Positions 4,525 to 19,771 of a DNA stretch of 27,228 nt are shown piece by piece. The DNA comes from a virus. The first letter of the stretch is position 1, and each line of letters begins with the position of its first letter. The position numbers and the translations under genes were made by a program. The notes under the pieces were generated by a model, which did no database searches, was not told where the DNA came from, and saw only the letters and a list, made by a program, of their open reading frames with translations. The stretch covers positions 1 through 27,228 of the IMG/VR virus record IMGVR_UViG_3300017746_000112. The stretch is one strand, 5' to 3'.

Positions 4525-4529
4525 AGTTT

Positions 4530-5003: not shown

Positions 5004-5018
5004 ACTATATAATATAAA
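5002..5018 (-). promoter_or_regulatory. Late 17-bp element, copy 5
   Basis: On the minus strand this reads TTTATATTATATAGTAT and runs into the ATG of the 157-aa gene, sharing its AT. It is one of five copies with 15 of 17 invariant positions. It follows the 52-aa gene by only a few bases, so it may provide a fresh start of expression inside the late operon. Confidence 0.6.
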
Positions 5019-5028
5019 AACAAGTAAT

Positions 5029-5187: not shown

Positions 5188-5204
5188 CTTTTTTATTTTA
5201 AGTT

Positions 5205-5232
5205 AAAAAAAAGGGGTAGCTATTGCCACCCC
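5205..5232 (-). terminator. Rho-independent terminator inside the late operon
   Basis: On the minus strand the sequence forms an 8-bp stem, GGGGTGGC, loop AATA, then GCTACCCC (one G-T pair), followed directly by eight T. This is a strong GC stem in otherwise AT-rich DNA. It comes 34 nt after the end of the 187-aa tube-like gene and 17 nt before the ATG of the 52-aa gene. It would end or attenuate transcripts from the scaffold, capsid and tube genes. Confidence 0.85.
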
Positions 5233-5266
5233 CTTAATAAATATGAAAACAAAACCATTTAAGGTT

Positions 5267-5830
5267 TTAAGAAGTCACTATTGCGTTAATTGTAAACGCT
5301 GCGTTGTCGAACGGAGTTGTTGTATAGTCCGCTAAAAGTTGCATTGGATTAGGTTCTTGTGCCTCGAAAGTAAAATCATATCCTACTGTATCTCCTAGAG
5401 CAACCCCAGAAACTGAAGTACCTGCAGATAATTCGCAACCGTTGTCTAAACCTAAAGCTACAATAGTATTTTTACCTGTACTATTTAATTGGTTTAGTTC
5501 TGCGAAAATAACCATTCTTTGTTGTGCTAATAGTTTAATTTCGTTTTGGTCTTCTTTAGTTAAGTTATGTAGTTTTACATTTACAGAGTGTGTATAAAAT
5601 ACAGTACCATTTTCGCTAGATGCGTTAATAGTTTCTGTTACACTCCCTGTACCTCTTTTAAGTAAATACTTATATAAGTCGTCACCTGAACCTAAATCGA
5701 AGTCTGTTACTTCACCACTAGCTGCTGTGTAAGACGTTAATTCATCGTGTTGTGCGATATAGATAGCTTTGATACCACCGATACCATCTCTACAAGTTAT
5801 GTTACGTCCTTTTGTTAAATTACAAGACAT
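5267..5830 (-). CDS. Probable tail tube or other abundant virion protein
   Basis: The 187-aa protein has a beta-rich pattern with several Gly/Thr turns: TKGRNITCRDGIGGIKAIY near the N-terminus, a central TETINASSENGTVFYTHSVNVKLH, a helix (EDQNEIKLLAQQRMVIFAEL) and a C-terminal GYDFTFEAQEPNPM. A helix packed against a beta-sandwich with this length matches siphovirus tail tube proteins, and the gene lies directly after the major capsid gene and before a terminator, as expected for a highly expressed virion protein. No catalytic motif is present. It could instead be a capsid decoration or hub protein; the tube call is inference. Confidence 0.5.
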   Translation of the reverse strand: MSCNLTKGRNITCRDGIGGIKAIYIAQHDELTSYTAASGEVTDFDLGSGDDLYKYLLKRGTGSVTETINASSENGTVFYTHSVNVKLHNLTKEDQNEIKLLAQQRMVIFAELNQLNSTGKNTIVALGLDNGCELSAGTSVSGVALGDTVGYDFTFEAQEPNPMQLLADYTTTPFDNAAFTINAIVTS

Positions 5831-5856
5831 TTTTTTTAGGTTTTAAAGGTTAATAA

Positions 5857-6708
5857 TTACGATTGTTTAGTAAAGTCTGAAGGTACACCAACTTGAACTC
5901 CTGCAGTATATCTACAAACCATTCTTACTACGTCTGATCCTGTAATGTCGCCCATATCTAAAACTTTCACCTCTGTTAAATCTGAACTTAGTGAAGTTCC
6001 AAAAAATACGTTAGACTTAGTACCTGCCCACATTACGTTGTCAGCTACACCCGAACAAACAGCGATAGAAATTCCTTCAAATTCTGGTGTGTATTGCCCC
6101 ATATGGTTAAAAGGGAATGCAGATAAAGCAGAAATAGCAGATAAGTAAAATCTGTAAGTTTTCTTGTTCATATAAATATAAAGATCGTCTTTTCCGTAAA
6201 CCGCTGCTGGTATATCAGCTACTAAAGTACCTAAGTTAGCTATAATGTTTGCTGCTGTATAAGCTGCAGACGCAGACGAAGTACTCATACCTGACGCACT
6301 TAAAGCGTTAAATTGTCCTGACGTAGAAGTGTTACCTTGCCAGATGTTAAATTCGATACTGTCTGCAATACTATCTGAAAGGTAAGTCATTGCGTAAGCT
6401 ACAAAGTCGTCTTGTTGTTCGTGCGCCCAGTCAGATAACATAGTTTTTTTACAAACGTCAATGTTAATTTGAAAAGGTTCTACTTCTAAAACTTGTTCTG
6501 TTAGTGTTAATGTTGCAGAATTTTCTGTAAAGTCACAAGTTGCGTCTTTTACTAGGTTTGCTCCTGCTACCTTGTTGATTACTTCCTTGTAAGATACGTT
6601 CTCTCTTACAGTTAAGTACTCTAAACTATCCGCTGCTTTTAAAGCTGCCGATACGTAAGCCCCTGCGTGTTTACCAGCGTATGAGCTTGATGTAATAGTT
6701 AATGCCAT
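5857..6708 (-). CDS. Major capsid protein
   Basis: The 283-aa protein begins MALTITSSSYAGKHAGAYVSAALKA and has the layout of Bacteroidetes phage capsid proteins: an N-arm, an E-loop-like segment (LEVEPFQINIDVCKKTMLSDWAHEQQDDF), an alpha domain with YMNKKTYRFYLSAI and a C-terminal axial domain ending VRMVCRYTAGVQVGVPSDF. The closing 'V..Y..GV' strand pattern is typical of this group. It follows an XkdF-like protease, a coiled-coil protein and an acidic scaffold-like protein, which is the classic capsid assembly set. There is no separate delta domain in the protein, so the scaffold function is presumably supplied by the upstream genes. It assembles into the icosahedral shell. Confidence 0.82.
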   Translation of the reverse strand: MALTITSSSYAGKHAGAYVSAALKAADSLEYLTVRENVSYKEVINKVAGANLVKDATCDFTENSATLTLTEQVLEVEPFQINIDVCKKTMLSDWAHEQQDDFVAYAMTYLSDSIADSIEFNIWQGNTSTSGQFNALSASGMSTSSASAAYTAANIIANLGTLVADIPAAVYGKDDLYIYMNKKTYRFYLSAISALSAFPFNHMGQYTPEFEGISIAVCSGVADNVMWAGTKSNVFFGTSLSSDLTEVKVLDMGDITGSDVVRMVCRYTAGVQVGVPSDFTKQS

Positions 6709-6722
6709 CGTTTTATTATTTT

Positions 6723-7424
6723 TTAGTTATTATTAATGTTATACCAATATTTCTCTTGTCTACTCATATTTCTATAGTCTGTTGCAGACAATTCTTTAGT
6801 GTTCTTTTTATTAGAAAACTTGTTTGTAGTTACAGGTTCTGAAGCTGGTTCTTTAGAAAGTTCTTCTAATTGTGCAGATAAAGTTTCTTTTTCAACTTCT
6901 AAAGCTTCGTTAGTTCCTTTCATTTCTTCTAATTCAGAAGATAATCTACTAACATCGTTTCTAACTTCAGTAAGTAATTCTTTAATAACAGCGCCGATTT
7001 CTTCGATCACTTCTTCTTTATTAAATTCTACTTCCTCTGTTGTTTTAATTTTCTTAGGTAACCTTTCGTTTACTTCTGAAGGTTCTACTACTTCTTCTAC
7101 AATTTCTTCGTTCATCTCTACTTCTTCTTCGTCTTTGTAGTCTTCTTCTTTTTCTGTTTCTACTTCTTCAGTTTCTAAGATTTCTGCTACTACTCCTTCT
7201 TCTTCTACAGAAAAACCTACTCCGTCTTCTGTTTCGTAAACTCCAACAGGTAACGGCATAGTCGTTCCGTCTTCTGCAAGAATTGCTACGTCTACAGATG
7301 CTGCTAGTTCATCAGCAGAACTTACTATTATAGTACCGTCAATAAGTTTAGCTTGAAATTCTAAGTTAGTTGCTTCGTCTTTGTTAAGACCTAAAGCTTT
7401 TAAGATTTGTGTTTTTAATTCCAT
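6723..7424 (-). CDS. Acidic scaffold-like protein
   Basis: The 233-aa protein is extremely acidic in its middle (residues about 80-135, long Glu runs such as ETEKEEDYKDEEEVE) and continues into a coiled coil (about 137-190, VRNDVSRLSSELEEMKG). It closes with a polar, asparagine-rich tail. The N-terminal part (LEFQAKLIDGTIIVSS ... PLPVGVYETEDGVGFSVEEEGVV) is a small beta unit commonly paired with XkdF-type proteases in Bacteroidetes phages. A position directly before the major capsid gene and this composition support a scaffold that is removed during maturation. The gene has its own late 17-bp element 15 nt upstream of the ATG. Confidence 0.65.
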   Translation of the reverse strand: MELKTQILKALGLNKDEATNLEFQAKLIDGTIIVSSADELAASVDVAILAEDGTTMPLPVGVYETEDGVGFSVEEEGVVAEILETEEVETEKEEDYKDEEEVEMNEEIVEEVVEPSEVNERLPKKIKTTEEVEFNKEEVIEEIGAVIKELLTEVRNDVSRLSSELEEMKGTNEALEVEKETLSAQLEELSKEPASEPVTTNKFSNKKNTKELSATDYRNMSRQEKYWYNINNN

Positions 7425-7438
7425 TTTAATTTTGTTTT

Positions 7439-7455
7439 ATACTATATAATATAAT
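7439..7455 (-). promoter_or_regulatory. Late 17-bp element, copy 4
   Basis: On the minus strand this reads ATTATATTATATAGTAT. It ends 14 nt before the ATG of the acidic scaffold gene, in a 51-nt gap that holds no gene. Together with the copy at 20053-20069 it is one of only two copies separated from the start codon by a true leader. Confidence 0.6.
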
Positions 7456-7475
7456 TGTTTAAGTTCTATTTGATT

Positions 7476-8033
7476 TTAGTAATCGAAGTCTAATTTATTT
7501 AAAGGGTTGTCTTCTAATTTTCTAAAGTTGTTTACTTGTGTTTCGTATTGTGAAACATTTACTTTTAGCCCTAAATCTTTCGCACCTTTTTCTACTAACT
7601 CTATTGCGTCTTCTAATTTGTCTGCTATACTTTCTGCTTTATTATAACTTGTCATATATTTATCGTTAGCGTTAAATACTTTTTTAGCTGCTGCGTCTGC
7701 TTTTTTTCGTGATACGTCTGCTTTTTTATTTACTTTAGTATATTCTTTTTCGAATTTTTCGACTGATTTTTTAAAGTCTTCTAACTCTTTTTCTTTTTTA
7801 AGTAAATTTTCCCATTTGTTTTGCTCCGCTTCTTTATCTTGTTTAAATACTTCGTTTACTTTATTAAAATTACCTAATTCAGATTTTATTTTACTATCGT
7901 CTAATTTACTTACTAAACTTTTAAGTTGTCCTGTTAATTTTTCTAAAGTTTTAATATCTTTAAAATCAAATCTTTTAACTCCTTTGTGCTTGTCTAAGAT
8001 AGCGTTTAATTTTATTTCGTAGTCTTTATACAT
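7476..8033 (-). CDS. Coiled-coil assembly protein sharing a C-terminal segment with the protease
   Basis: The 185-aa protein is almost wholly helical and highly charged, with heptad-like stretches from about 60 to 150 (NKWENLLKKEKELEDFKKSV, KADVSRKKADAAAKKVF). Its C-terminal part (SYNKAESIADKL ... EKGAKDLGLKV, about 129-156) resembles the C-terminal part of the neighbouring protease (KAESEAKKLNKVF ... KKQAKDLGVPL). This suggests a common scaffolding or targeting segment. It lies between the protease and scaffold genes, 18 nt after the former, so a role in procapsid assembly is likely. There is no recognisable enzyme motif. Confidence 0.6.
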   Translation of the reverse strand: MYKDYEIKLNAILDKHKGVKRFDFKDIKTLEKLTGQLKSLVSKLDDSKIKSELGNFNKVNEVFKQDKEAEQNKWENLLKKEKELEDFKKSVEKFEKEYTKVNKKADVSRKKADAAAKKVFNANDKYMTSYNKAESIADKLEDAIELVEKGAKDLGLKVNVSQYETQVNNFRKLEDNPLNKLDFDY

Positions 8034-8051
8034 TTTATTTTATTTTATTTT

Positions 8052-8981
8052 TTAGTCTTCAATACCATACACAATAGAAGAAGCCTTTTCTAATTGACTT
8101 GCTGCGTTTCGTGTACTATTTTCGTAAGCGCTTGCGTTTCTTATTAAACCTGCTACTTCGTTAGGTAACGGTACACCTAAATCTTTTGCTTGTTTCTTTA
8201 CTTTTTCCCAATTGTTTTCTAAATCTGTAAATACTTTATTTAGTTTTTTTGCTTCACTTTCTGCTTTATCAATTATAGAACCCGCTTTCCTTGCAGAACT
8301 ATTTATAGAATTAAACTTGTCTATTGCTTTTTTCGTTTCTTTTTCTAAATCGTCAATAAGTCCTAAATTAACTTTTATTTTACCTTCTGCTTGTAGTTCT
8401 TTGTATGCAGTTCTTATTTGTTCGTCTGTGTATTGTTTACCCATTTTTTCTAATTTATCTACAAAATATCCTTCAATGCTTAAACCGCGTAACTCCCCTT
8501 CTTTTATCTTATCCCAAAGATCTGAATTTTCGATTTTCATTTTTACAAACCAAGTACCATTTGCTAAATCAAAACCGTATAGTTTACTTTTATCTTGGTC
8601 ACCTTCTTTTATCCAACTTTCTACTGTTAATACGCCCGATACTCTTTGTTCGTGTTGGTATGTTGCTTTATGGTGGTTGTTGTGTTTTAAGTAACTATAA
8701 GCTGCCTTCTTTACAGTATCTTTTGAAAAGTATACGTAATAGTCGCTGTCTGTATTTGCGTCGTATCTGTAGATCTGTTTATTAGGTATTAAAGCTGGTG
8801 CTATAAGTTCTCTTTTTTCTTCGTCTACTTTAGCAAAGGTTAAGTTATTCTTTTCTTTACCAAAAAATACAAAGTCTACTTCTATAGCTGGTGACGTTAC
8901 TAAACTAATTGCGTCAATTGCTAAAGCTTCGTTTTCTTCGTCTATAACTAATTCTGTTATCTTAGTTGTTTTCTTTTTCAT
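8052..8981 (-). CDS. XkdF-like prohead protease (Peptidase S78_2 type) with scaffold-like C-terminus
   Basis: The first ~180 residues of this 309-aa protein match the XkdF-type putative serine protease layout: ALAIDAISLVTSPAIEVDFVFF (20-40), a histidine in TYQHEQ (H110), VESWIKEG (120-127), WFVKMKIEN (144-152) and the serine in GELRGLSIEGYF (S168). H110 and S168 are the expected catalytic pair. The remainder is a charged coiled coil that resembles the next protein (see the 185-aa gene). Such proteases cut scaffold and capsid subunits during head maturation. The ATG at 8981 directly abuts a late 17-bp element, leaving almost no leader. Confidence 0.8.
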   Translation of the reverse strand: MKKKTTKITELVIDEENEALAIDAISLVTSPAIEVDFVFFGKEKNNLTFAKVDEEKRELIAPALIPNKQIYRYDANTDSDYYVYFSKDTVKKAAYSYLKHNNHHKATYQHEQRVSGVLTVESWIKEGDQDKSKLYGFDLANGTWFVKMKIENSDLWDKIKEGELRGLSIEGYFVDKLEKMGKQYTDEQIRTAYKELQAEGKIKVNLGLIDDLEKETKKAIDKFNSINSSARKAGSIIDKAESEAKKLNKVFTDLENNWEKVKKQAKDLGVPLPNEVAGLIRNASAYENSTRNAASQLEKASSIVYGIED

Positions 8982-8998
8982 ATACTATATAATATAAG
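8982..8998 (-). promoter_or_regulatory. Late 17-bp element, copy 3
   Basis: On the minus strand this reads CTTATATTATATAGTAT and is followed immediately by the ATG of the protease gene. It differs from the other copies only at the two variable positions. It lies in the 38-nt gap after the tape measure gene. Confidence 0.6.
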
Positions 8999-9019
8999 TT
9001 ATTTGTTATTATTTGATTT

Positions 9020-10858
9020 TTAAATTGTACTTCTTCTATTTATGTCTTCCATCTGTGCTTGACTATCTGTAATTTCTGATTCTACTACAAACGCCTTAAC
9101 CGCTTGTTGTTCTACACCACCTAAACTAAAAGCACCTGTACTTGCTGGTATCATAGTGTCTGGTACGTCTGTACCACCTACACCACTAGCACCACCTGTT
9201 TTTTCACTTTTAATATTTGCTATTTGTGCAATACCCATAGCTCCGTGTATACCCGCTTGTATAAGTCCAAAAGGTGCTGGTATGTCTGCTAACGCTCGCA
9301 TAATAGACTTACCCGTAAAAAATGCAGTTTCAGCAATTGCTATCTTTTTTTGTACTTTTTCGTTTTTACCTCCTAACGCTTTAGCTAGTTCAAAACCTTG
9401 TGTGTCCATACTAGCTTTAAAGTCTGCTTTGTTTTGTTCTCTTTGTAAATAATTAGCTTGCTCTGCGTCTAGTCGTTCTTGTCTTTTTTGTTCTAGTTCA
9501 TTAAGTATATTTTCACCTTCTGTACTAATAGTCAATAACCCGTCTACAGTGTCTTCTACATATCCTTTTTGTATGTCTTTACGTTTTTGTGTAAATTTTT
9601 CTTCTATTAAAAGCCTTTGTTCTTCATAGTTTGTAGCGTCTTGTATCTTTTCTAGTTGTAAATCTTTTTCAAATTTTAGTAAAGCTAGTTCTCTAGTTTC
9701 TTCGTCTTGTATTCTTTCTAGTGATAATCTTTTTGCTTCTTCTTGTAACGCTCTTAGGTCTTCTGCGTCTTTTTCTCTTTGTGCTTTTCGTTCTGACCTC
9801 CTTTGACTGCTACGCTGTCTTCTTTCGTTGTCTTTCTGTTCTTTATCCTGTTCTGCTGCTATTTCTTTTTGTACTGCTGCTATTTTTAAATCTAATATAT
9901 CTACATTATTTTGTAGTGTTGTAGAATTTTTTTGTAAAGTTGTGGTATTGTTTTGTATTATTCTTTGACTTTCTTTACTGTGGTCGCCTAAATTTTCTAA
10001 ATTGTCTGCGTTTTTATTTAGTTTATCTGAATTTTCATTTAAAGCAGTTTCGTTTTCATTTAATCTATTAGTTAACCTAACTAACTCTCTTTCTGCTTCT
10101 GTATTTGCTGCCGATAATTCTTGTTGTAACTTTCTATTTTTTAAAAATTCATTATTTTGATTTGCTAACTCTCTATTTAAGTTTGCTTGTGATTGTGTTA
10201 CGTTATCTGTAGCTGTAGCCCAGTCGTAAACAGCTTTCCCTATAGCTAAGATTGCAATAACTAAAGCACCAATACCTGTTGCTGCTATAGCTAGTTTTAA
10301 AGCTTTCAAACCTACAGTAGTTAAAGCTATAGTCCCGTTCCATACTCCTTGTGCTGTAGCTGCGATACCTGTTGCTACTGCTTGACCTTTTGTAACTACA
10401 ATACCTAGTTTAGATTGTACTATAGCTAGTTTTTCTGCGACAACCCTTTTAGCAGTAGTAGCCATCAAAGCCGCTTCACTCATCATACGTACACCCATTG
10501 CTATACTAATAGCCGCTTGTACTTTTACTTGTATCTTTTCTAAGTCTTCACTTTCAACACCTGCAAGTGCAAGACTTCCCTGCATTATTGCGAAACCGCC
10601 GGCTATACCCTCTCCCATCTTAAGAAAGGCCTCTGCCTTTTGTTGTGGCTCAAGTCCTTCTAAACCTTTTTCTAAGGTCTTAATTTCAGAACCTGTTTTT
10701 TGTATTTTTTGTGCTAAGGTTTCAAAAGCCTGACTACCTACTTCAACTTCTTTTATAGCATCTCTTGCGTCGTTTAACTCTTTTTCTAACTGTCCTAAAG
10801 TCTTTACGGCTTTGTCGCCTCCTTTTAGTTTTAATTCTAACTCTACTCTTTCACTCAT
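9020..10858 (-). CDS. Tail tape measure protein
   Basis: The 612-aa protein has the usual tape-measure pattern: an N-terminal coiled coil (LGQLEKELNDARDAIKEV), alanine/glycine-rich apolar segments at about 85-215 (GEGIAGGFAIMQGSLALAG, IAATGIGALVIAILAIGKAV) that may insert into the host membrane, then long charged coiled coils (about 230-470, RRQRSSQRRSERKAQREKD) and a C-terminal apolar stretch (about 500-545). Such proteins fill the tail tube and set its length. Using the usual ~1.5 A per residue, a tail of roughly 90 nm would be expected (estimate, not measured). It lies between the fibre gene and the protease gene, so it marks the tail/head module boundary. Confidence 0.85.
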   Translation of the reverse strand: MSERVELELKLKGGDKAVKTLGQLEKELNDARDAIKEVEVGSQAFETLAQKIQKTGSEIKTLEKGLEGLEPQQKAEAFLKMGEGIAGGFAIMQGSLALAGVESEDLEKIQVKVQAAISIAMGVRMMSEAALMATTAKRVVAEKLAIVQSKLGIVVTKGQAVATGIAATAQGVWNGTIALTTVGLKALKLAIAATGIGALVIAILAIGKAVYDWATATDNVTQSQANLNRELANQNNEFLKNRKLQQELSAANTEAERELVRLTNRLNENETALNENSDKLNKNADNLENLGDHSKESQRIIQNNTTTLQKNSTTLQNNVDILDLKIAAVQKEIAAEQDKEQKDNERRQRSSQRRSERKAQREKDAEDLRALQEEAKRLSLERIQDEETRELALLKFEKDLQLEKIQDATNYEEQRLLIEEKFTQKRKDIQKGYVEDTVDGLLTISTEGENILNELEQKRQERLDAEQANYLQREQNKADFKASMDTQGFELAKALGGKNEKVQKKIAIAETAFFTGKSIMRALADIPAPFGLIQAGIHGAMGIAQIANIKSEKTGGASGVGGTDVPDTMIPASTGAFSLGGVEQQAVKAFVVESEITDSQAQMEDINRRSTI

Positions 10859-10861
10859 ATT

Positions 10862-11707
10862 TTAAAATGTTACTGCGTTTGTTTTGTTTATATGTAATTT
10901 TACTACAGCGTGCCAACTTGTATTTACGTTGTTTTGTCCTGCTATCTGTACCTTTAATGTAAATGCTGTTGCTGTATCTATTGTTTTTGTTCCTAAACTA
11001 CCGGTACGTCCTAATAACCTACTTATTTTTGCGTTGTGTGTAAGTGTTCCTGTGTTACCACACCTTATAGTGCCGTGGTACTCGTAAGTTTCGTAGTCGC
11101 CTGGTGTTCCTGAAGAACCTCCCGTTACTAAACCACTTAACCAGATTTCATAAGTCGTAACACTATTAGCTGGTAGCAATATTTCGTTTTGTAAAACGTC
11201 GTTACCTTCTATATATAGGTCTACGTCTGACGTACTTGTTGTTTTACCTGAAACTTGTAGTACTGAATATTGCGTTAGTCCTGCCTCACTATTAAAACTA
11301 CCTCCACCTATACAAAATTCGCTGTCGTGTGTTACTTTACCCATTTTACCGACAAGTAAACTATTGTTTATATTGTTTTGTACTTCGTTCTTTTCACCTG
11401 TTACTAAACAGTTTTCGTTAAACCCTTTTGCAGTGTTTAGTGTTCCGTTTATTATAGATCTAGAAGTACCTTTTTCGTGTTTATTAGAAGCACCCGCAAT
11501 AGTATTTGAAGGTTCTTTTAGTTGTTTATTTAGTTTTGACGTAGGTATAAAAGATATACAAGTACCTGTTCGTGTGTCGTATTTATAACCGTACGCTTCA
11601 CAAGCTAACTGATTTGGTACTACATCGTTTGTACCGTCTGTAAATATTACTAAACCGTTTAAATTTACTTCTTTAGGTTTTATTTTAAAGTCTTTTTTAA
11701 ATTCCAT
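10862..11707 (-). CDS. Tail fibre / receptor-binding protein with YadA-head-like repeats
   Basis: The 281-aa protein has an N-terminal attachment segment (FKIKPKEVNLNGLVIF) and then repeats of the left-handed beta-roll kind seen in YadA-like trimeric heads, at about 66-140: NTIAGASNKHEKG, SIINGTLNTAKG, NCLVTGEKNEV, NSLLVGKMGKV, EFCIGGGSFN. The C-terminal half (about 160-281) is a beta-rich domain with Gly/Ser/Thr turns that could be the binding head. It overlaps the 904-aa baseplate gene by one base and precedes the tape measure by 3 nt. Similar beta-roll proteins sit at the tail tips of Bacteroidetes phages, so host recognition is the likely role. Confidence 0.65.
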   Translation of the reverse strand: MEFKKDFKIKPKEVNLNGLVIFTDGTNDVVPNQLACEAYGYKYDTRTGTCISFIPTSKLNKQLKEPSNTIAGASNKHEKGTSRSIINGTLNTAKGFNENCLVTGEKNEVQNNINNSLLVGKMGKVTHDSEFCIGGGSFNSEAGLTQYSVLQVSGKTTSTSDVDLYIEGNDVLQNEILLPANSVTTYEIWLSGLVTGGSSGTPGDYETYEYHGTIRCGNTGTLTHNAKISRLLGRTGSLGTKTIDTATAFTLKVQIAGQNNVNTSWHAVVKLHINKTNAVTF

Positions 11708-14421
11708 TATGGTATTAGTATAAATTCTACACTACTTAATTCGTAAGGTTTGTATTCTATTTTATTAACTCTATATTCTCTATTCTTAATCCTAATTTTA
11801 TAGTAGAACTCGAAGTTAGCAATGTCTGCTGGTGTTAAATACACCTTTATACTAACAATTCTTGTATCTGGGTTGTATAGTTCATCGTAATACGGTGACC
11901 AATACGTATTGTATAAGTTGTCTATAGGTGTGTTACCTATCGAACCTATTAATTGTCCTGTTCTGAAATTATAGTCTTTTGTATTTGCAGTTGTTGGTGT
12001 TTCTGTTAAGTGTGAAAACTGTAAAAAACTACTTTGATTTTCTTCTGATACACCATTTTGTGCTGGTATAAAATATGTATTGTTAGACATAGTAACTTTA
12101 CCTATATTATAGAGTATTCTAGGTTTGTTGTCGTAACTTTCAAAAGTTCCGTCTTCGTTACCTTTATATATTACGGGTATAGTCATCTCTGTAGTAAATC
12201 CGTCAAATATAGGTTTAACAAATGTAGGACTAAAAGGTTTTGCTTCTACTTTAGTTTCACCAGACAAGCCTGTAAATATACTTGCGTCTATTTCTTCAGA
12301 TCCGTATTTATAACCAGTTGCGTTTTTATAAATTCCTAAAGCGTAGTCGTTACTGTCTTCTACAAAGTCTAAAAATACCTTTTTCTTTAGTTTTAAAGGT
12401 TTTAGTTTAATTTCTGATATATCTACTTTAGAAGTCCAGTCTAACGTCTTATGCGTTATGTATTGACTTGTTGCGTCTATAAATACTGAATTATAAGGTT
12501 CTATAATTAAATTACTAGGGTTTTCTTTATCTTGTAGTACTAATAAATTAAACATCGTAAACAATCCTTTTAAAAACTCAAATTGTCCTAAGTCACCACG
12601 TAATACTGTAAGTATTCCTGTATTTACTAAATTAATTTGCGAAACAGATGTAGAACCGAAAAAATCTGTAAACTTAACTACAGAACCCGCAGTAGCTTTA
12701 AATTGTGGTTGTATAGTTTCACCTGAATTTAATATTATACCTGTCATATAACCAGAAATTGTCGCAGTAGTTCCTGCTGCTAAAGTAATAGTTTGTAAAT
12801 CGTGTTCTATACCTGTAGAAGTAAACCACCTAAAAGTAACGTCTCTACTAGAAGTGTCTGTATTTTGTATGTCTATATGATAACCTACATTAAACTGTAA
12901 ATTGTTTACGTCTGCTGTATATACACCCGTCGCAGTGTTGTATTGTGCTATTCCGTCACCCGCATAAAGTCCTGTTGCTAACGGTATTATGGTAGTATAA
13001 CTTGTACCTGCGTAAATTGTAGAAGCACCTGTAGGTGCGTTTATTTGAGTGTGTGAACTTCCTGTAGCTAGGTTCGGTGCACTATCACCGAAATTAAAGT
13101 CCATAAATAGTTTTGTAAAATCTGTACTATTTAAAAAGTCTGAATTATAAGTAAAACCTGCTTCTGTAATTATCCGATCTAATAAATATTTACAATTTAT
13201 AAAAGGTCTAAAAGCGTCTTCAAGTCTTTGTAGTGTTACGTTACCTGCGTCTAAGTAACTGTCGCCGTTCCATTTTACAAAAGGGTATTTAATTACGTCT
13301 GTCTTGTCTACTCCTAAAGTTGCGTTATATGCAAAACTATCTGTAGTTAAACTATTAAGTAAAGTAACACCATCGTTACTTTCGAAACTTGCTTTTATAT
13401 TTGTCTTGTCGTAAGTGTGTGAAAGTTCTGTAAAGTCAATATGTTTAAATTTCTTGTCTTTTAGTTTGTCTGCTAGTGTTATTGTTTCACCGTATAAGTT
13501 TACATTATAACTTATTTCGTTTTGTTTATCTACTACATCTATAAGTGTTAAATATCCGTCAAAAATCGTGTAGCCGTCTTCTTTTAAAATAGCCTTTGTT
13601 TTCTTATATGGGTTAAAACTAAATACATCGTCTTTTACACTTTTAGTTACATCAAATAGACTCGTAAATATTTTGTTGTTTCTTTTTGTTGCTGGTAATT
13701 TAAAAGGTTTACTAAAACTTTGTTTCTTTTCGTGTATGTTTTTAAAATCGTCTACAGATAAACTTAAAGGTATATTACTTTCGTTATAAAGGTCGCAAAT
13801 AACTTGACCGTCTTTAAATACGTCTGTTGTTGGTGCACTACCTAAACTTTCTTTTATAGAAACTTCGCCTATTTCTAACTTTGTATTGTCGTTGTTACCA
13901 TAAGTTATAATAAATACTTGTTCGGTTTCTGTAGCTGTAAACGTAAAAGTATGCGTACCTACTGTAGCGGGTAGTCCTGCGTTTAAAATAGGTGTATATA
14001 AAACACCGTTATTTGTAAAAGGACTTGATAAACCTATAGCTGTTAAACCTGTTGTACCTGCTAATCGTTGTACTTTTACTATATAAGTAGAACCTATTGT
14101 AAGGTTGCTTATTAATTGATATATTCCAGAAAAACTAGACGTACCACTATCTGCGCAGTCTATTGTTATTTTACCACTACCAACAGAAGCTGCGTCTGCA
14201 GATCCTAAACCCCCTGTAGTGTTAAATTGTTGCCAAACATTTATAGGTGCTGGTATAGATGACAATATTTGTGCTTGTGTAGAAGCACTACCACTAAAAC
14301 CTGTACCTAGTGTACCTATATTAAAAGAATAGTCACTTACGTATTCTGTAAAAAAAGGTGTGCTTATTGCACTGTATTGACCTTCGTAGTTTTGTGGGTA
14401 TAGTATTAGTTGTACACTCAT
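11707..14421 (-). CDS. Large baseplate / tail tip protein
   Basis: The 904-aa protein has two parts. Residues about 30-195 look like a carbohydrate-binding beta-sandwich (WQQFNTTGGLG, KITIDCADSGTSSFSGIYQL, HTFTFTATETEQVFIIT). From about 200 the sequence changes to a baseplate-type region (FKDGQVICDLYNESNIPLSL, KQSFSKPFKLPATKRNNKIF, FDGYLTLIDV), which I recognise from Bacteroidetes phage tail modules, and it ends YKIRIKNREYRVNKIEYKPYELSSVEFILIP. The C-terminal Y/K/R/E beta pattern is typical of hub-type proteins. A 1-nt TAATG overlap links it to both neighbours. The N-terminal domain may have been inserted and could bind surface glycan. Confidence 0.65.
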   Translation of the reverse strand: MSVQLILYPQNYEGQYSAISTPFFTEYVSDYSFNIGTLGTGFSGSASTQAQILSSIPAPINVWQQFNTTGGLGSADAASVGSGKITIDCADSGTSSFSGIYQLISNLTIGSTYIVKVQRLAGTTGLTAIGLSSPFTNNGVLYTPILNAGLPATVGTHTFTFTATETEQVFIITYGNNDNTKLEIGEVSIKESLGSAPTTDVFKDGQVICDLYNESNIPLSLSVDDFKNIHEKKQSFSKPFKLPATKRNNKIFTSLFDVTKSVKDDVFSFNPYKKTKAILKEDGYTIFDGYLTLIDVVDKQNEISYNVNLYGETITLADKLKDKKFKHIDFTELSHTYDKTNIKASFESNDGVTLLNSLTTDSFAYNATLGVDKTDVIKYPFVKWNGDSYLDAGNVTLQRLEDAFRPFINCKYLLDRIITEAGFTYNSDFLNSTDFTKLFMDFNFGDSAPNLATGSSHTQINAPTGASTIYAGTSYTTIIPLATGLYAGDGIAQYNTATGVYTADVNNLQFNVGYHIDIQNTDTSSRDVTFRWFTSTGIEHDLQTITLAAGTTATISGYMTGIILNSGETIQPQFKATAGSVVKFTDFFGSTSVSQINLVNTGILTVLRGDLGQFEFLKGLFTMFNLLVLQDKENPSNLIIEPYNSVFIDATSQYITHKTLDWTSKVDISEIKLKPLKLKKKVFLDFVEDSNDYALGIYKNATGYKYGSEEIDASIFTGLSGETKVEAKPFSPTFVKPIFDGFTTEMTIPVIYKGNEDGTFESYDNKPRILYNIGKVTMSNNTYFIPAQNGVSEENQSSFLQFSHLTETPTTANTKDYNFRTGQLIGSIGNTPIDNLYNTYWSPYYDELYNPDTRIVSIKVYLTPADIANFEFYYKIRIKNREYRVNKIEYKPYELSSVEFILIP

Positions 14422-15869
14422 TACATTAATTGACTTTTCTTAGTTTTATCTACTTCTATTTTAAATGTATATTGTATTAATTTGTCGTTAGCTTTTGTTT
14501 TTCTTGTATGTGAACTATCCGTTACTGTAGTAGGTTTTATATACTTTCTCATATAGCCCTGTTGTGCTGTGTCTGTAGATCGTTGTTCTAATATATAGAC
14601 GTCATTACTTATAAATAGTTCTTCTAACCAAATAGCCTCGTTTTCTGTTATGTAGTCTGTGTTTAATGTTATACTTTCTTTTGTATTACTACCGAAGTAT
14701 TTTTTACCGCCTGTGTGCCCGTCTGGTCTGTACCTGCTTGTATTCCAAGTACCCGTTATTTGTGTGTAAGACTTTCTTTGTGTATTAAACGTTCTAACGG
14801 ACTTTTTCGTAAAGTTGTAGTAGTCCCATACCCCGAACTTATTTAACCAAGTTAAACGTATCGTTTCGTATTCTTTACAGTCTTCTGTTTGTTTGTAAAA
14901 CTTATATTCTTGACTAATAGCATCAACAGCCCCGAAAGCTTGTACTGTGTAATAATCCCAATTAGTCGGTATTGTTACACCTGCTCCTACTAAGTTACCT
15001 GTACCTATTCCTGCAAATTGTAGTTTAACATTACTGTCGTTCATATAACCACTATGTCCACCTGTCGATGCTTGTATAGTTTTCGTTATTAAAGAACCTG
15101 TAGTACTTCCGTTATAATAGAATTGTATTTTAACACTTCCTACAGAAGGGTGGGTTTGTCCTGCTGTACCTACTTCAAAATCAAAATCGTACTGGCTAAA
15201 ATAAGATAAAGTTAAATAGTCGTTTTCTCGTATGTATTGTGTAGTCGGTGCGTTAGTTAAAAACTTGTCTGTATTACTATTCATAACAAAACCCGCTTCG
15301 TCTAAGTTAAACCCAAAACTACCTGTACTATTTAAGTTTAAAATATCTGTATCGTATAGTACACCGTTATATATTAAAACAGTGTCTGCAATAGTATTAG
15401 ATGTATATTGTTCTGTTACCGATCCTGTAGCACTATCAGAAGCTTCTATATTAAACCTTACCGCAACAAACCTAACACTATTTCTATTTGTACTAAAGTC
15501 GTCTATTTGGTGTATTGTGTGGGGTGTGTTTTCTGTATAGTCTACTCCGTTGTATTGCGAATTGTTTAAAGTATTTGTGTTGTGTACTGTACCCCCTGTG
15601 TATTCTGGGCTTACATAGTTTTGTAAAATAGGTGACAAGTCAAATATTCCGTAACCTTCACCGTTAGGACTTACTTTAAATACTCCTACTCTATTAGCAC
15701 TTGAAACTATATTAGAAGTTTTGTTACTTACATATACTTCTGCTTTATATTTTATTTTAAACTTATTGTTTATAGGGTTTATAGTTACTGCGTCGTATAG
15801 TGTGTAAATTATATTGCTACCTGCTGGTATAAGTCTATATCTGGGTTTTTGTTCTATTACTAAACTCAT
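14421..15869 (-). CDS. Tail or baseplate structural protein
   Basis: The 482-aa protein is beta-rich throughout and has no enzyme motif. The start (VIEQKPRYRLIPAGSNIIYTLYD) and the segment KVSPNGEGYGIFDLSPILQNYV (about 66-87) match a pattern I associate with Bacteroidetes siphophage tail proteins encoded next to the large baseplate protein. The middle contains a conserved-looking YETIRLTWLNKFGVWDYYNFTKKS (about 335-358). Coupling by 1-nt overlaps to the gp10-like gene upstream and the 904-aa gene downstream supports a role in the distal tail. The exact function is unknown. Confidence 0.6.
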   Translation of the reverse strand: MSLVIEQKPRYRLIPAGSNIIYTLYDAVTINPINNKFKIKYKAEVYVSNKTSNIVSSANRVGVFKVSPNGEGYGIFDLSPILQNYVSPEYTGGTVHNTNTLNNSQYNGVDYTENTPHTIHQIDDFSTNRNSVRFVAVRFNIEASDSATGSVTEQYTSNTIADTVLIYNGVLYDTDILNLNSTGSFGFNLDEAGFVMNSNTDKFLTNAPTTQYIRENDYLTLSYFSQYDFDFEVGTAGQTHPSVGSVKIQFYYNGSTTGSLITKTIQASTGGHSGYMNDSNVKLQFAGIGTGNLVGAGVTIPTNWDYYTVQAFGAVDAISQEYKFYKQTEDCKEYETIRLTWLNKFGVWDYYNFTKKSVRTFNTQRKSYTQITGTWNTSRYRPDGHTGGKKYFGSNTKESITLNTDYITENEAIWLEELFISNDVYILEQRSTDTAQQGYMRKYIKPTTVTDSSHTRKTKANDKLIQYTFKIEVDKTKKSQLM

Positions 15870-16423
15870 TATTTAAATTTCATTTTTTTATTCATAACTT
15901 TTATTCCTTTTAGTACATCATCTTTAAAAGCTTTTTCCATTTCTTTTTTAAATTCGTTATAACTCCAACTTAAAGGTTGTGTATAAAAACTTAGTGCACG
16001 TATACCTTTACTTTTAATACTTCTAGCTATTAGAAACGCTAAAGACTTTCTAGTTATAAACCTACCTTTACGGTCACGTCCTCTAATACCCTTGATTTTA
16101 GTCCAATCCGATATAACGTTACTAGGAGGTTGTTTGCTTCTAAAACGAAACGGACTAGCTTTTCTTTTACCCCTTTCATCTATATAGGTTCTTCTTACTT
16201 TGTTACCTGAAACACCTTTATTTAAAAATGCTGCGTGCTTACTAGCTAAAAATTTTAATTCGTAACCGTCTTTTGTTTCTTTTACTTTATGTTTTAAAGA
16301 AGCTTGTAAGTTACCTGTTGCTGTATTAAATTTTAGCAATTTTTTTGCCTGTCTTACAATATATTTACCGTAAGAATTTAAATATTTTTCTACGCTCTTA
16401 TATTCTAAATCGAATAAAGTCAT
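15869..16423 (-). CDS. Tail completion / gp10-like neck protein
   Basis: The 184-aa basic protein begins with a helix and then shows TGNLQASLKHKV (about 37-48), ELKFLASKHAAFLNKGVSG (55-73) and an Arg/Lys-rich middle. The 'Y.L.F....YA.F...G' pattern is that of HK97 gp10-type tail completion proteins, in which a small beta domain presents a G-containing loop. Such proteins join the tail tube to the head. The C-terminal helix (YNEFKKEMEKAFKDDVLKGIK) is typical too. It overlaps both neighbours by one base. Head-tail joining proteins normally lie between head and tail genes, but here it is among tail genes. Confidence 0.6.
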   Translation of the reverse strand: MTLFDLEYKSVEKYLNSYGKYIVRQAKKLLKFNTATGNLQASLKHKVKETKDGYELKFLASKHAAFLNKGVSGNKVRRTYIDERGKRKASPFRFRSKQPPSNVISDWTKIKGIRGRDRKGRFITRKSLAFLIARSIKSKGIRALSFYTQPLSWSYNEFKKEMEKAFKDDVLKGIKVMNKKMKFK

Positions 16424-16872
16424 TATACACTAGCTACAAATACTTCTACTTTAATATCGTTAGTAGTTGTAGGTCTAACTTGTATGCTAGCTAAGTCTTC
16501 CATAGTTCCGAAACTTGGTGAAGTGTCTGCTTCTGCTAGTAGTATATCGTCACCGTTATATATTACGTGTGTAGCCCCCGCCCTTAACCTTACTTGGTAT
16601 AACGTAGCACTTCCTACAAAAGCTATTTCTGCTTCGTTAGTATCGTCTAAGTTAGTTATTCTAATATACTTTGCGTTGTCTTTGTCTAAAGCTCCTGTAG
16701 ATGAGTGAGGACTTGCTGCAAAAGCTACAATAGTTGTAGTTTGCGAGTGTGTACAAGTTTCTACTCGTTCGTAAGTGTGGTTTATACCTGTTGTTGTAAG
16801 TGTGTTTGTAGAACCTCTGTTAGTTCCGTTAATTGTTACACTTTCTGAAATTGTAATTTGTAAGTCTGACAT
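16423..16872 (-). CDS. Putative virion protein, beta-rich
   Basis: The 149-aa protein is Thr/Ala/Ser-rich and beta-prone (ISESVTINGTNRGSTNTLTTTG; CTHSQTTTIVAF; KYIRITNLDDTNEAEIAFV; YQVRLRAGATHVIYNGDDIL). It has no membrane span or enzyme motif. The KYIRITNLDD ... L.AG pattern resembles small phage decoration or tail-tube-associated proteins. It lies between a 116-aa helical gene and the gp10-like gene, so it is probably structural. It could even be a tube protein, competing with the 187-aa product at 5267-5830. Confidence 0.55.
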   Translation of the reverse strand: MSDLQITISESVTINGTNRGSTNTLTTTGINHTYERVETCTHSQTTTIVAFAASPHSSTGALDKDNAKYIRITNLDDTNEAEIAFVGSATLYQVRLRAGATHVIYNGDDILLAEADTSPSFGTMEDLASIQVRPTTTNDIKVEVFVASV

Positions 16873-16873
16873 A

Positions 16874-17224
16874 TTATTTTTTATCTATTTGTTTAAGTTT
16901 ATTTATTGCCCAATTTATACCACTAGAACCGCCCCACGCATCCCACATAATACCCCCGCAACCTTCGCTGTATGGTACGTCTTTATGTTGTTGGTGTCTT
17001 TTAAATGAAGACATACGCGCTATAGTATCTCTAGATATAGGTTTTCTGTCTGCTAATTGTCTTGCTCTAGTCCAACCTACACGAGTACCACAACTACTAC
17101 CGTTTTCTTCTTTGTACTCTATAGCTCGTTTAGCGTTGTTAGTTGCTGCTTGTGGATAGTCTGTATAACTTTCTAACTCTATACTTATTTCTTCTAGTTT
17201 CTCTATTACTTCGTTATAGTCCAT
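16874..17224 (-). CDS. Stand-alone 'GTxVGWxRARQLA' helical domain protein
   Basis: The 116-aa protein consists of ATNNAKRAIEYKEENGSSCG (27-46), then GTRVGWTRARQLADRKPIS (46-64), DTIARMSSFKRHQQHK (66-81) and IMWDAWGGSSGINWAI. I recognise this segment as one that is usually a C-terminal extension of phage head proteins (portal, protease or minor head proteins), where its function is not known. Here it is a free-standing gene in the tail module. The conserved Arg, His and Trp residues suggest nucleic acid contact or protein packing rather than catalysis. It is separated by 45 nt from the upstream gene and 1 nt from the downstream one. Confidence 0.65.
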   Translation of the reverse strand: MDYNEVIEKLEEISIELESYTDYPQAATNNAKRAIEYKEENGSSCGTRVGWTRARQLADRKPISRDTIARMSSFKRHQQHKDVPYSEGCGGIMWDAWGGSSGINWAINKLKQIDKK

Positions 17225-17269
17225 AAGTTATTTTTGGTGGTATTAATTGTATTGTTAATTTTCCTATTT

Positions 17270-17779
17270 TTATTTTGAACATATTGTAGTATTGTCTATT
17301 GGTACAATACAACTATTCAATTCGTTTTCTACTGTTATTGCAAAAGACATAACCCAACCTGTTACTGCGTTGTCGTATTCTTCTGTAAATGGTTCAATTG
17401 TAAAGTCGTTGTCTATAAAGTATCTTTGTTCCTCTCCTGCTGCTGCGTCGTATGCGTATAGTATCTCACCTTGTTTATATACTGCTATTATGTCGTTCAT
17501 TATTTCTAAACAGTCACTTAGTACTTCTTGTTCGTTACTACTGTCTGGTTCTACTAAGTTCATTACAAACAACTGAAAGTTAAACGATCTTGTATTTTGT
17601 CCTACCGTTACGTTTACGGGGTTTATATGAAACAAAGGAAATAGTGTATTCTTTTCTAAGTCAATAGTCCAGATGTCACCACTTGTAACAGTATTTATAT
17701 TTAAGTGTTGTTGTCCTACACACTTTAAGGTATCTATTACGTTATTGTAACTTTTAAATCTTATGCTGTCTATACTCAT
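17270..17779 (-). CDS. Putative tail terminator-type structural protein
   Basis: The 169-aa protein has a ferredoxin-like alternating pattern: YNNVIDTLKCVGQQHLNINTV (11-31), DIWTIDLEKNTLFPLFHINP, then NFQLFVMNLVEPDSSNEQEVLSDCLEIMNDIIAVY (about 67-101), and a C-terminal TGWVMSFAITVENELNSCIVP. This succession of beta-strand, helix and strand with a C-terminal 'F.I.V.N.L' strand matches tail terminator or tail-to-head joining proteins. It overlaps the 3' end of the frameshifted chaperone extension by 26 nt, and its ATG lies inside that extension. The call rests on the fold pattern and context only. Confidence 0.5.
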   Translation of the reverse strand: MSIDSIRFKSYNNVIDTLKCVGQQHLNINTVTSGDIWTIDLEKNTLFPLFHINPVNVTVGQNTRSFNFQLFVMNLVEPDSSNEQEVLSDCLEIMNDIIAVYKQGEILYAYDAAAGEEQRYFIDNDFTIEPFTEEYDNAVTGWVMSFAITVENELNSCIVPIDNTTICSK

Positions 17780-18005
17780 TTTCTATTTTTTGGTTTACGT
17801 CTTTTTTATAACTCATAAATGTTAAACATTCGTACGCTGGTTTCTTTACTACTTGTTCTACGTTTAAAAAGTTTTCGTTTGCTAACATATAGATAGCGTT
17901 GTACCATCCCCACTTTTTAGCTAGTCCGTCACTAAATCCTTCTTCGTCAGTTTCTCTATTGAAGACTTCTTCGAATTTATTAAAAGTTGCGTTCCTAAAT
18001 CGTAA
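17754..18005 (-). CDS. Frameshift extension of the tail assembly chaperone (gpT-like, -1 frame)
   Basis: In the -1 frame relative to the chaperone gene, an open frame of 83 codons runs from the T9 run to a TAA at 17754-17756. The translated sequence (LRFRNATFNKFEEVFNRET, DEEGFSDGLAKKWGWYNAIY, LANENFLNVEQVVKKPAYEC, LTFMSYKKDVNQKIENEYRQ) is clearly protein-like. The same frame is closed by a TAA five codons before the TTA at 18003-18005, and the first ATG occurs only at extension residue 40, so there is no ATG, GTG or TTG to start the conserved-looking part. Frameshifting at 18004-18012 would give a fusion of about 261 aa (178 + 83). This is like the G/GT pair of lambda-type phages. Confidence 0.7.
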   Translation of the reverse strand, partial: LRFRNATFNKFEEVFNRETDEEGFSDGLAKKWGWYNAIYMLANENFLNVEQVVKKPAYECLTFMSYKKDVNQKIENEYRQHKI

Positions 18006-18538
18006 AAAAAAACCGAAGCACCGTTAAAGTCTTCTACCTTTAAATGTTTCTTAAATAGATCTGCTCGTTCTTCGTTAGGTTCGTAGTCTTCTATTCTATA
18101 CTTGTCGTCCTTCTTTGCTGTAACAGGTCTGTATAATATACTTAGAATATTATGTAGATTTTCTTCTAAGTTTTCTGTATATGTTTCTAAGTCTACAAAT
18201 TCCCCTAAAGTCATATCTACTAACTTCGGATGGAAACCATACTCTACACCTTCTATTTCTATAAAGTGTTTAAGTTCGTCTGTAGGTACTGTTTCTAAAA
18301 ACGTAGTTAAGTGTTTACCTAACTTACCTATACTTTTCATATCCAAACCGTACAACTGCCTTTTAGGTATATCTGTAATACAATTAAGTATTCTTATAAC
18401 CTTTTCAATATCGTGTACGTCCTCATCTTTTTTAAGAACTGACATAAGTCTTTGATACCTTCCTAAGTTTAATTCGTCAAAACTTTCAGGTATATTAAAA
18501 CTTAACTTCTTCTTACCGTTCAATAGTTTTACTTTCAT
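17921..18538 (-). CDS. Tail assembly chaperone (gpG-like), zero-frame product
   Basis: The 205-aa protein starts MKVKLLNGKKKLSFNIPESFDELNLGRYQRL, a pattern common in Bacteroidetes phage proteins encoded upstream of the tape measure, then is mostly helical (IEKVIRILNCITDIPKRQLY; MTLGEFVDLETYTENLEENL). It ends with GASVFFYDLGTQL and a lysine-rich tail. A T9 run at codons 176-179 would allow a -1 shift to the 83-residue extension, leaving this shorter product as the major form. Such pairs bind the tape measure and guide tail tube assembly. The gene is not directly next to the tape measure, which is unusual. Its ATG lies in a late 17-bp element. Confidence 0.65.
   Translation of the reverse strand: MKVKLLNGKKKLSFNIPESFDELNLGRYQRLMSVLKKDEDVHDIEKVIRILNCITDIPKRQLYGLDMKSIGKLGKHLTTFLETVPTDELKHFIEIEGVEYGFHPKLVDMTLGEFVDLETYTENLEENLHNILSILYRPVTAKKDDKYRIEDYEPNEERADLFKKHLKVEDFNGASVFFYDLGTQLLINSKKSSIEKLTKKDLVTD
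18004..18012 (-). promoter_or_regulatory. Slippery T9 run, putative -1 ribosomal frameshift site
   Basis: On the minus strand the zero frame reads TCG GTT TTT TTT TAC. The nine T (complement of 18004-18012) allow both tRNAs to slip back one base and re-pair, as at T TTT TTT heptamers. After a -1 shift the frame reads TTA CGA and enters the 83-codon extension. I cannot judge a downstream stimulatory structure by eye. Confidence 0.65.
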
Positions 18539-18553
18539 AGTATATAATATAAA
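18537..18553 (-). promoter_or_regulatory. Late 17-bp element, copy 2
   Basis: On the minus strand this reads TTTATATTATATACTAT and its last two bases are the first two of the ATG of the chaperone gene. It lies in the 30-nt gap after the terminase large subunit gene. The variable position near the 3' end is C here instead of G. Confidence 0.6.
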
Positions 18554-18568
18554 TTTGTTGTTTTTAGT

Positions 18569-19771
18569 TTACTGTACGAAGTACTTACCTGCGTTAGGGT
18601 TGTCTAAGTGGTATATTACGTTATAACGTATAGCGTCTATAGCGTGGTTAAAACTATCTACGTATAATTTAGAACCTTTATCTGCGTATATATAGTTGTT
18701 TAATTCTTTAACTATATTTATACTGTCAGGTTCTACTATTAGTTCGTAGTCTTGCATTCGTGTTACTCCACTTTCTATTGTTCCTTTTTTTACAGGTCTT
18801 ATATTAACTCCCGTATGTCTTAGGTCTTCTATTAGTCTAGGTTCTGCACTATCCGCTACTATTAGTTTATTACCTACTTTGTTTAATACAATCTTTGCTA
18901 ACTCGTGTGACTTTAACCCGTTTCTGTATATATGTTCTTTAAGGTATATTTTCTTTTTCGTTTTGTCTATAGCTATTTCTATTAAAGTATCTGGATCAAC
19001 AGAAAACCCGAAGTCCATACCGCAAGACGTTTGTAAGTCGTTAGGGTTAAACCTTCCTATACTCCAATTCTCAAATACTACACCTTCTGCTTTATCTAAC
19101 CAACCCCCAAGTATTTTATGGTTATACTTCTTTATATTGTTTTCTTGTATTGTTTCTATACGTTGTAAAAAACTTTCGTTTAAGTTGTGTTTGTTATCTA
19201 AGTATGTTGAGTGTATATAACAGATGTCGTCTTTAATACCATTAAAACCTGCTTCTACACCTCTGTTTTCAAAGAACCTTTTATATATCCAGTGTTCCTT
19301 TGTTGTAGGGTTAAGTATTAATACTATTCTGTTTTGTACTCCCTTTTCTCTAATTGATAGATCTATAGTGTCAAAAGTGTTTTCGTCTATTAGTTCTTCT
19401 GCTTCGTCAAGTACCCAACAACTAATACCTTGTAAAGACTTTAGACTTGCTGTCTGGTTTCCTGAAGAAGTCTTAATACCTCTAAATATAATATCGCTGT
19501 TTGTTTTAGTATTGACTACTTCGGACTTGTTAATATTAAAGATACTCGTAAAACCTAATAACCCGATTTTCTCTAAAAACTCTGGTACAATACTTAGGTG
19601 TGCACTAATCATAGTATAACGAGTAAACAATACCCTAACACCTTTAGACATAGTTAGTAGTGTTAAGAATACTGTAACTGCAAAAGACTTACCAGAACCT
19701 CGACCACCTGTAACTATGTAATATCTACAATTAGATGTAAATAGATTATTGTATTTACTATTTAGGTTCAG
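18569..19771 (-). CDS. terL: Terminase large subunit (TerL), apparent non-AUG start
   Basis: The large subunit is an ATP-driven packaging motor and nuclease. Starting at CTG (19769-19771) gives 400 aa. Walker A is GGRGSGKS at 22-29, Walker B is CWVLDE at 118-123, and the C-terminal nuclease has D253 (GMDFGFSVDPDT), D307 (IVADSAEPRLIEDL) and D379 (SFNHAIDAIRY), in the order of PBSX-type terminases. The first ATG is at 19651, after Walker A; a protein from there would lack it. The frame is closed by TAG at 19775-19777, so translation must begin in a few codons. CTG fits the expected N-terminus (NLNSKYNNLFTSN), but +1 recoding from TerS cannot be excluded. It overlaps TerS by 14 nt. Confidence 0.85.
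   Translation of the reverse strand: MNLNSKYNNLFTSNCRYYIVTGGRGSGKSFAVTVFLTLLTMSKGVRVLFTRYTMISAHLSIVPEFLEKIGLLGFTSIFNINKSEVVNTKTNSDIIFRGIKTSSGNQTASLKSLQGISCWVLDEAEELIDENTFDTIDLSIREKGVQNRIVLILNPTTKEHWIYKRFFENRGVEAGFNGIKDDICYIHSTYLDNKHNLNESFLQRIETIQENNIKKYNHKILGGWLDKAEGVVFENWSIGRFNPNDLQTSCGMDFGFSVDPDTLIEIAIDKTKKKIYLKEHIYRNGLKSHELAKIVLNKVGNKLIVADSAEPRLIEDLRHTGVNIRPVKKGTIESGVTRMQDYELIVEPDSINIVKELNNYIYADKGSKLYVDSFNHAIDAIRYNVIYHLDNPNAGKYFVQ

What the first reader, a model, noticed from the sequence alone, without database searches (positions are those of the whole stretch)
17754..18538. Putative -1 programmed ribosomal frameshift joins the tail chaperone to an 83-residue extension
Seen in sequence: a T9 run at codons 176-179 of the 205-aa gene, followed in the -1 frame by 83 protein-like codons (including KKWGWYNAIYMLANE) up to 17754. 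That frame is closed by TAA just upstream of the run and has no ATG, GTG or TTG before the conserved-looking part, so only a shift would translate it. Established: G/GT tail chaperone pairs of long-tailed phages use such slips. Unusual: the gene is next to terminase and about 7 kb from the tape measure. It sits beside a tail-terminator-like gene.
Basis: partly seen in the sequence, partly recalled or inferred. Interest (0 to 1): 0.75.

Follow-up and report, generated by a model that had tools for sequence, protein, structure and literature searches.

The report
Nine-T slip makes two phage proteins
A run of exactly nine T's in a virus gene next to the DNA-packaging motor has been kept for a very long time in viruses of Bacteroidota bacteria, where it lets one gene make a short and a longer protein; the pattern suggests that the copying enzyme (RNA polymerase), rather than the ribosome, does the slipping.

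Summary
A T9 run (18012-18004, minus strand) joins the 205-aa frame to an 83-residue -1 frame, giving a 261-aa fusion.

The recoding is very probably real. All 198 parsed locus records with the homologous extension (47 clusters at 85% identity, 10 at 40%; marine phage contigs, cultured Nonlabens phages P12024L/S, Bacteroidota genomes) carry T9 or, rarely, T10 at the same point, and the extension is always in the -1 frame. Distant phages (Duneviridae, Leefvirus, a Microcystis phage) encode both halves in one ORF (hhalign E 4.5e-11), so the fusion is a genuine protein.

The heptamer T_TTT_TTT needs seven T's, yet none has seven or eight. When the run moves by one base against the codons, upstream and downstream T's compensate to keep nine (Fisher p 2.6e-6 to 0.005). 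Runs of nine or more are avoided elsewhere in coding sequence. No stimulatory hairpin or Shine-Dalgarno is seen. This favours programmed transcriptional slippage (U9 to U10); ribosomal slippage at the same site is not excluded.

A tail/neck assembly role is plausible from synteny but unproven.

The parts
17921..18538 (-). 0-frame ORF, 205 aa (short product); residues 1-178 form the shared N-terminal domain
   Evidence: AlphaFold2 mean pLDDT 80.9
18004..18012 (-). T9 slippage run (codons 176-179: GTT TTT TTT TAC)
   Evidence: conserved as T9/T10 in all 198 parsed locus records
18005..18011 (-). T_TTT_TTT heptamer in 0-frame register, contained in the T9 run (possible ribosomal -1 site)
   Evidence: sequence
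17754..18005 (-). -1 frame extension, 83 codons plus TAA, W-x-WY helical domain; fused product 178+83 = 261 aa
   Evidence: homologous to the C-terminal half of single-ORF proteins
17921..18004 (-). 0-frame tail after the slip point (27 codons plus stop), overlapping the extension
   Evidence: in the window's own group its length is not beyond chance (P 0.34), but in two other groups the 0-frame overlap is constrained
   Evidence: found next to the gene in 45 of 45 representatives with enough flank
15869..16423 (-). 184-aa protein with a weak match to tail completion/Neck1 (phrog_5), conserved in the module
   Evidence: 44 of 45 representatives
18569..19651 (-). terminase large subunit, immediately upstream
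   Evidence: Pfam PF04466 5.6e-29; upstream in 45 of 47 representatives

Best explanation
The gene makes two proteins that share a 178-residue N-terminal domain: a 205-aa product by ordinary decoding and a 261-aa product with an 83-aa helical C-terminal domain reached by a programmed frame change at a T9 run. Most likely the RNA polymerase stutters on the nine T's, so that a fraction of the mRNAs carries ten U's; ordinary translation of those mRNAs reads the -1 frame. The ribosome may add to this, because every T9 also contains the heptamer U_UUU_UUU. The two products probably act in virion tail or neck assembly, in a set ratio like lambda gpG/gpGT. Shown: the conserved frame arrangement, the fusion's homology to single-ORF proteins, and conservation of run length independent of codon phase. 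Inferred: which machine slips, the efficiency, and the assembly role.
For: All 198 locus records have T9 (192) or T10 (6), never 7 or 8, and the extension is always -1. Eleven further loci that the parser missed also have T9. Five more remote Bacteroidia homologues are all exactly T9, with homologous extensions. The residue before FF and the residue after FF co-vary so that the run stays at nine: V/L/I-FF-Y/W/C/S (run starts at codon position 2) or S/G/A/T-FF-L (starts at position 3); the combination that leaves eight T's with the heptamer intact never occurs (Fisher 2.6e-6 for 47 clusters, 0.0048 for 10 clusters). The outer T's play no part in tandem ribosomal -1 re-pairing. Runs of nine or more A or T are avoided in other genes of these phages (A 3 observed vs 15.7 expected; T 1 vs 4.5) and in a Flavobacteriaceae chromosome (T 3 vs 12.9; A 16 vs 33.9), while in-phase 7-8 runs are not avoided in the host (observed/expected T 1.22, A 1.49) and phage A runs are equal in and out of phase; this is the logic Baranov 2005 used for transcriptional slippage (PMC1088944). 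No downstream RNA structure (mean z -0.04, 48 representatives) and SD-like sequence in 2 of 48. E. coli RNA polymerase slips on T runs from T7, about 10% at T8, and prefers poly(T) (PMC6260861); transcription insertions rise exponentially with run length up to 9 (PMC5574713). The fused profile aligns end to end with single-ORF proteins of Duneviridae, Leefvirus and a Microcystis phage (hhalign probability 97.2%, E 4.5e-11, 218 columns).
Against: No RNA or protein data: slippage itself is not observed. Every T9 includes the perfect ribosomal heptamer. The well-studied frameshifts in tail chaperones are ribosomal. Phage T7-8 runs are somewhat rarer in phase (0.62) than out of phase (0.90), though numbers are small (13 observed vs 21 expected). 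Avoidance of long runs could also come from replication slippage. Pseudoknots and nascent-peptide or tRNA effects were not tested. No fusion-protein fold could be predicted.
Confidence: 0.62

Rival explanations
1. Classical programmed -1 ribosomal frameshifting: two tRNA-Phe slip back on U_UUU_UUU, giving a G/GT-type pair. The extra T's are side effects of the residues preferred at the flanking codons.
For: The heptamer is in register in every homologue; long precedent in tail genes (PMC5009743). Phage in-phase T7-8 runs are slightly depleted.
Against: It does not explain why seven or eight T's never occur or why the flanking codons compensate to keep nine. No structure or SD stimulator. In-phase T7-8 runs are not avoided in the host.
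Confidence: 0.3
2. The extension is a separate gene translated from its own start, as annotated for gp41 in Nonlabens phage P12024L/S.
For: gp41 is annotated with an internal ATG.
Against: 39 of 47 representatives, the window included, have no ATG, GTG or TTG before the W-x-WY motif, and the conserved FFLxFR part lies upstream of the annotated start. Single-ORF homologues join both halves.
Confidence: 0.03
3. Sequencing error, pseudogene, or phase variation by changes in the DNA run length.
For: Homopolymers are error-prone; phage 6H's record appears to carry indels at the homologous gene.
Against: T9 in independent metagenome contigs, two cultured phages and several bacterial genomes; both frames stay open, and in two groups the 0-frame overlap is longer than chance (P about 0.002 or less). 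Run length hardly varies between relatives, as phase variation would predict.
Confidence: 0.02
4. A rival on function, not on mechanism: the two products are head-tail connector or neck components and not tail-tube chaperones.
For: The gene sits in a TerL - gene - 169 aa - neck/tail-completion-like block, far from the tape measure; in Cellulophaga phage Ingeline_1 the homologue is the second gene after the adaptor protein.
Against: Weak links to tail families: phrog_166 tail protein, PF10109, 'tail assembly chaperone' ctCpR1; in Ingeline_1 the tape measure is close downstream, with two genes between.
Confidence: 0.35

Closest known systems
Lambda gpG/gpGT tail assembly chaperones (and HK97, P2, Mu counterparts)
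   Same: Short product plus a -1 extended product from one gene in the morphogenesis region; the extension is a separate domain
   Different: The run is always nine (rarely ten) T's and not a variable XXXYYYZ heptamer; no stimulator found; the gene sits beside TerL, 7 kb from the tape measure; remote relatives encode only the long form in one ORF
Programmed transcriptional slippage (Thermus dnaX, Shigella mxiE/spa13, IS elements, Citrobacter tssM)
   Same: Run of nine or so A/T inside a gene gives two products; runs of that length avoided elsewhere
   Different: The conserved organisations found in a survey of 108 genomes had 9A runs, in IS elements and mapW (PMC1088944); here a T9 run in a phage morphogenesis-region gene of Bacteroidota; slippage not yet shown
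phrog_32199 / phrog_38404 (Inhavirus gp40 and gp41, unknown function)
   Same: The two halves of the same system; T9 and -1 arrangement present in P12024L/S
   Different: Annotated as two separate hypothetical proteins
phrog_25418 (single-ORF proteins of Duneviridae, e.g. Ingeline_1 gene 5, FPSV-F7 QCW20227.1)
   Same: Homologous over both halves (hhalign E 4.5e-11)
   Different: One uninterrupted ORF of 259-301 aa, no T9

Membership tests
G/GT tail assembly chaperone pair | -1 frame change producing a C-terminally extended second product | tested here: met
   By sequence only: conserved T9 and -1 extension in all homologues; fusion homologous to single-ORF proteins
G/GT tail assembly chaperone pair | Gene directly upstream of the tape measure gene | tested here: not met
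   In the window it lies next to TerL, 6.9 kb from the tape measure; in the remote relative Ingeline_1 two genes lie between
G/GT tail assembly chaperone pair | Sequence or fold match to a known tail chaperone family | tested here: inconclusive
   No Pfam or NCBIfam match above cut-off; PF10109 E 0.033 in 1 of 46, phrog_166 tail protein best 3.8e-4, 13 of 46; no significant PDB match
G/GT tail assembly chaperone pair | Binds tape measure and major tail protein; absent from virions | not testable with these tools
   Needs protein experiments
Programmed -1 ribosomal frameshifting | X XXY YYZ heptamer in register | tested here: met
   T_TTT_TTT at 18011-18005 and in all homologues
Programmed -1 ribosomal frameshifting | Stimulatory downstream structure or upstream SD (common, not obligatory) | tested here: not met
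   Mean z -0.04 in 48 representatives, SD-like in 2 of 48; pseudoknots not tested
Programmed transcriptional slippage | Run of about nine or more A or T at the shift site, kept whatever the codon phase | tested here: met
   T9/T10 in all; phase 1 and phase 2 with compensation
Programmed transcriptional slippage | Runs of this length avoided in other genes, independent of ribosomal phase | tested here: met
   (small numbers for T in phage); replication slippage could contribute
Programmed transcriptional slippage | mRNAs with extra nucleotides at the run | not testable with these tools
   No RNA data available

The most novel reading that the evidence does not exclude
RNA polymerase slippage on an invariant T9 run is the sole and ancient mechanism by which many Bacteroidota phages set the ratio of two assembly proteins. 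It would be a conserved use of programmed transcriptional slippage in a phage morphogenesis gene, doing the job that ribosomal frameshifting does in lambda-like phages.
Probability: 0.5. Interest if true: 0.78.

Novelty: new variant of a known kind. Interest (0 to 1): 0.64.

Why it matters
If true, phages reached the same end (a set ratio of a short and an extended assembly protein) by a different machine, the RNA polymerase in place of the ribosome, paralleling dnaX in Thermus versus E. coli. It would show that Bacteroidota RNA polymerase slips usefully on T9. It also shows that annotation of these phages misses a conserved 80-90-residue domain or lists it as a separate gene. Cultured phages (P12024L/S) make it directly testable.

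Tried and rejected
A first mixed alignment (A5) was misaligned and not used for folding. PDB fold searches with the N-terminal domain gave nothing above noise, nor did VIA with the extension; this does not show a new fold. PDB sequence hits (chitinases, a partial Crov588 match) were judged chance. Flavobacterium phage 6H first looked like a homologue with a T_TTT_TTC site, but relatives 2A and FPSV-F7 show one ORF, so the 6H record probably has indels. The near-immediate +1-frame stop after the run was considered as a slippage feature, but it follows from the two overlapping protein frames. One viral-contig scan found no relative. Literature searches found no report of transcriptional slippage in a phage tail gene in the held library, which is not proof of absence.

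Full report
OBSERVATION. The window is an IMG/VR virus record of 27,228 bases. Codons 176-179 read GTT TTT TTT TAC; the -1 frame from 18005 runs 83 codons to the TAA at 17754-17756, giving a 261-aa fusion.

CONSERVATION. Relatives were collected from viral contigs, from cultured phages (Nonlabens phages P12024L and P12024S) and from Bacteroidota genomes. In 198 locus records a frame with the W-x-WY motif of the extension could be paired with the upstream frame. All 198 have the extension in the -1 frame and a T run of 9 (192) or 10 (6); none is shorter. Some records come from the same contig, so clusters are the fairer count: 47 clusters at 85% identity (45 T9, 2 T10) and 10 at 40% (all T9). 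Of the sixteen loci the parser missed, several are contigs cut near the site, and eleven show the same T9. Four of the most remote homologues (HMM E-values between 1e-14 and 6e-7 for the N-terminal domain) and one closer one again have exactly T9 and an extension that matches the family profile.

THE FUSION IS A REAL PROTEIN. The N-terminal domain model matched, in the viral structure library, proteins of Nonlabens phage P12024S (E 3e-11) and Flavobacterium phage 6H (5e-5). Relatives of the 6H protein in Unahavirus FPSV-F7 and 2A, Labanvirus laban6-1, Cellulophaga phage Ingeline_1, Polaribacter phage Leef_1 and a Microcystis phage are single ORFs of 259-301 aa without a T9. The profile of the fused family aligns with the profile of these proteins over 218 columns on both sides of the slip point (hhalign probability 97.2%, E 4.5e-11). 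Single-sequence comparisons were weaker. So the -1 extension is an old, genuine domain; in the T9 group it is most likely reached only by a frame change.

TWO PRODUCTS. In two of three groups of T9 phages the 0-frame stays open for 50-67 or 83-89 codons over the extension, more than expected given the -1 protein (median P 0.002 and below), so the unshifted product also appears constrained. In the window's own group (25-40 codons) this is not significant (P 0.34).

WHICH MACHINE SLIPS. The ribosomal heptamer T_TTT_TTT uses the third base of codon 1 and the whole of codons 2 and 3; it is at the same place in all members. What varies is the flanking T's: one upstream and one downstream (V/L/I-FF-Y/W/C/S), or none upstream and two downstream (S/G/A/T-FF-L), or one and two (T10). 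None upstream with one downstream would leave eight T's and an intact heptamer; it never occurs (tables from [[39,2],[0,6]], Fisher 2.6e-6, to [[6,0],[0,4]], 0.0048). Hence selection appears to act on total run length. In a Flavobacteriaceae chromosome and in these phages, runs of nine or more A or T in coding sequence are two- to five-fold rarer than after synonymous shuffling, while runs of seven are not rare in the host and show no in-phase deficit there. This is the pattern that Baranov and co-workers used as a sign of transcriptional slippage (PMC1088944). E. coli RNA polymerase needs at least seven T's, reached about 10% at T8 and prefers poly(T) (PMC6260861). No RNA structure downstream (mean z -0.04) and almost no SD-like sequence (2 of 48) were found. 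I therefore favour transcriptional slippage (about 0.6) over ribosomal frameshifting (about 0.3), with a mixture possible. Direct RNA evidence is missing.

FUNCTION. TerL, the T9 gene, the 169-aa neighbour and the 184-aa neck/tail-completion-like protein form a conserved block (45 of 47, 45 of 45 and 44 of 45 representatives with enough flank). Weak matches point to tails: phrog_166 tail protein in 13 of 46 members (best 3.8e-4), PF10109 Phage_TAC_7 at 0.033 in one member, Foldseek to a 'tail assembly chaperone' at 0.07. A tail or neck assembly role by a short/long pair, like lambda gpG/gpGT, is the best guess, not a finding; membership of the G/GT family is not claimed.

NOVELTY. Programmed frame changes in phage tail genes are well known; a conserved T9 site with the marks of transcriptional slippage in such a gene was not found in the literature searched. 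I rate it a new variant of a known kind.

Noticed in passing
L235 (KC959568, Flavobacterium phage 6H) 10352-10927: The annotated 191-aa gene appears truncated by indels in the record; relatives 2A and FPSV-F7 carry a single 293-aa ORF.
   Followed up: partly
window 2072-2080: An A9 run on the coding strand inside the portal gene (1428-3551), one of few A runs of nine or more in coding sequence of these phages; possible second slippage site.
   Followed up: no
window 1428-19651: Unusual gene order: TerL, T9 gene, 169-aa, 116-aa, 149-aa, neck-like, tail proteins, tape measure, protease, scaffold-like, capsid-like, portal with a long C-terminal part.
   Followed up: no
L047 5085-5252 (Nonlabens phage P12024L gp41): Annotated as an independent 55-aa gene; it is the 3' part of the -1 extension.
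   Followed up: yes
L025 group, e.g. L056 2490-2760: About 87 codons are open in two frames at once (0-frame tail and -1 extension), a long overlap conserved across the group.
   Followed up: partly
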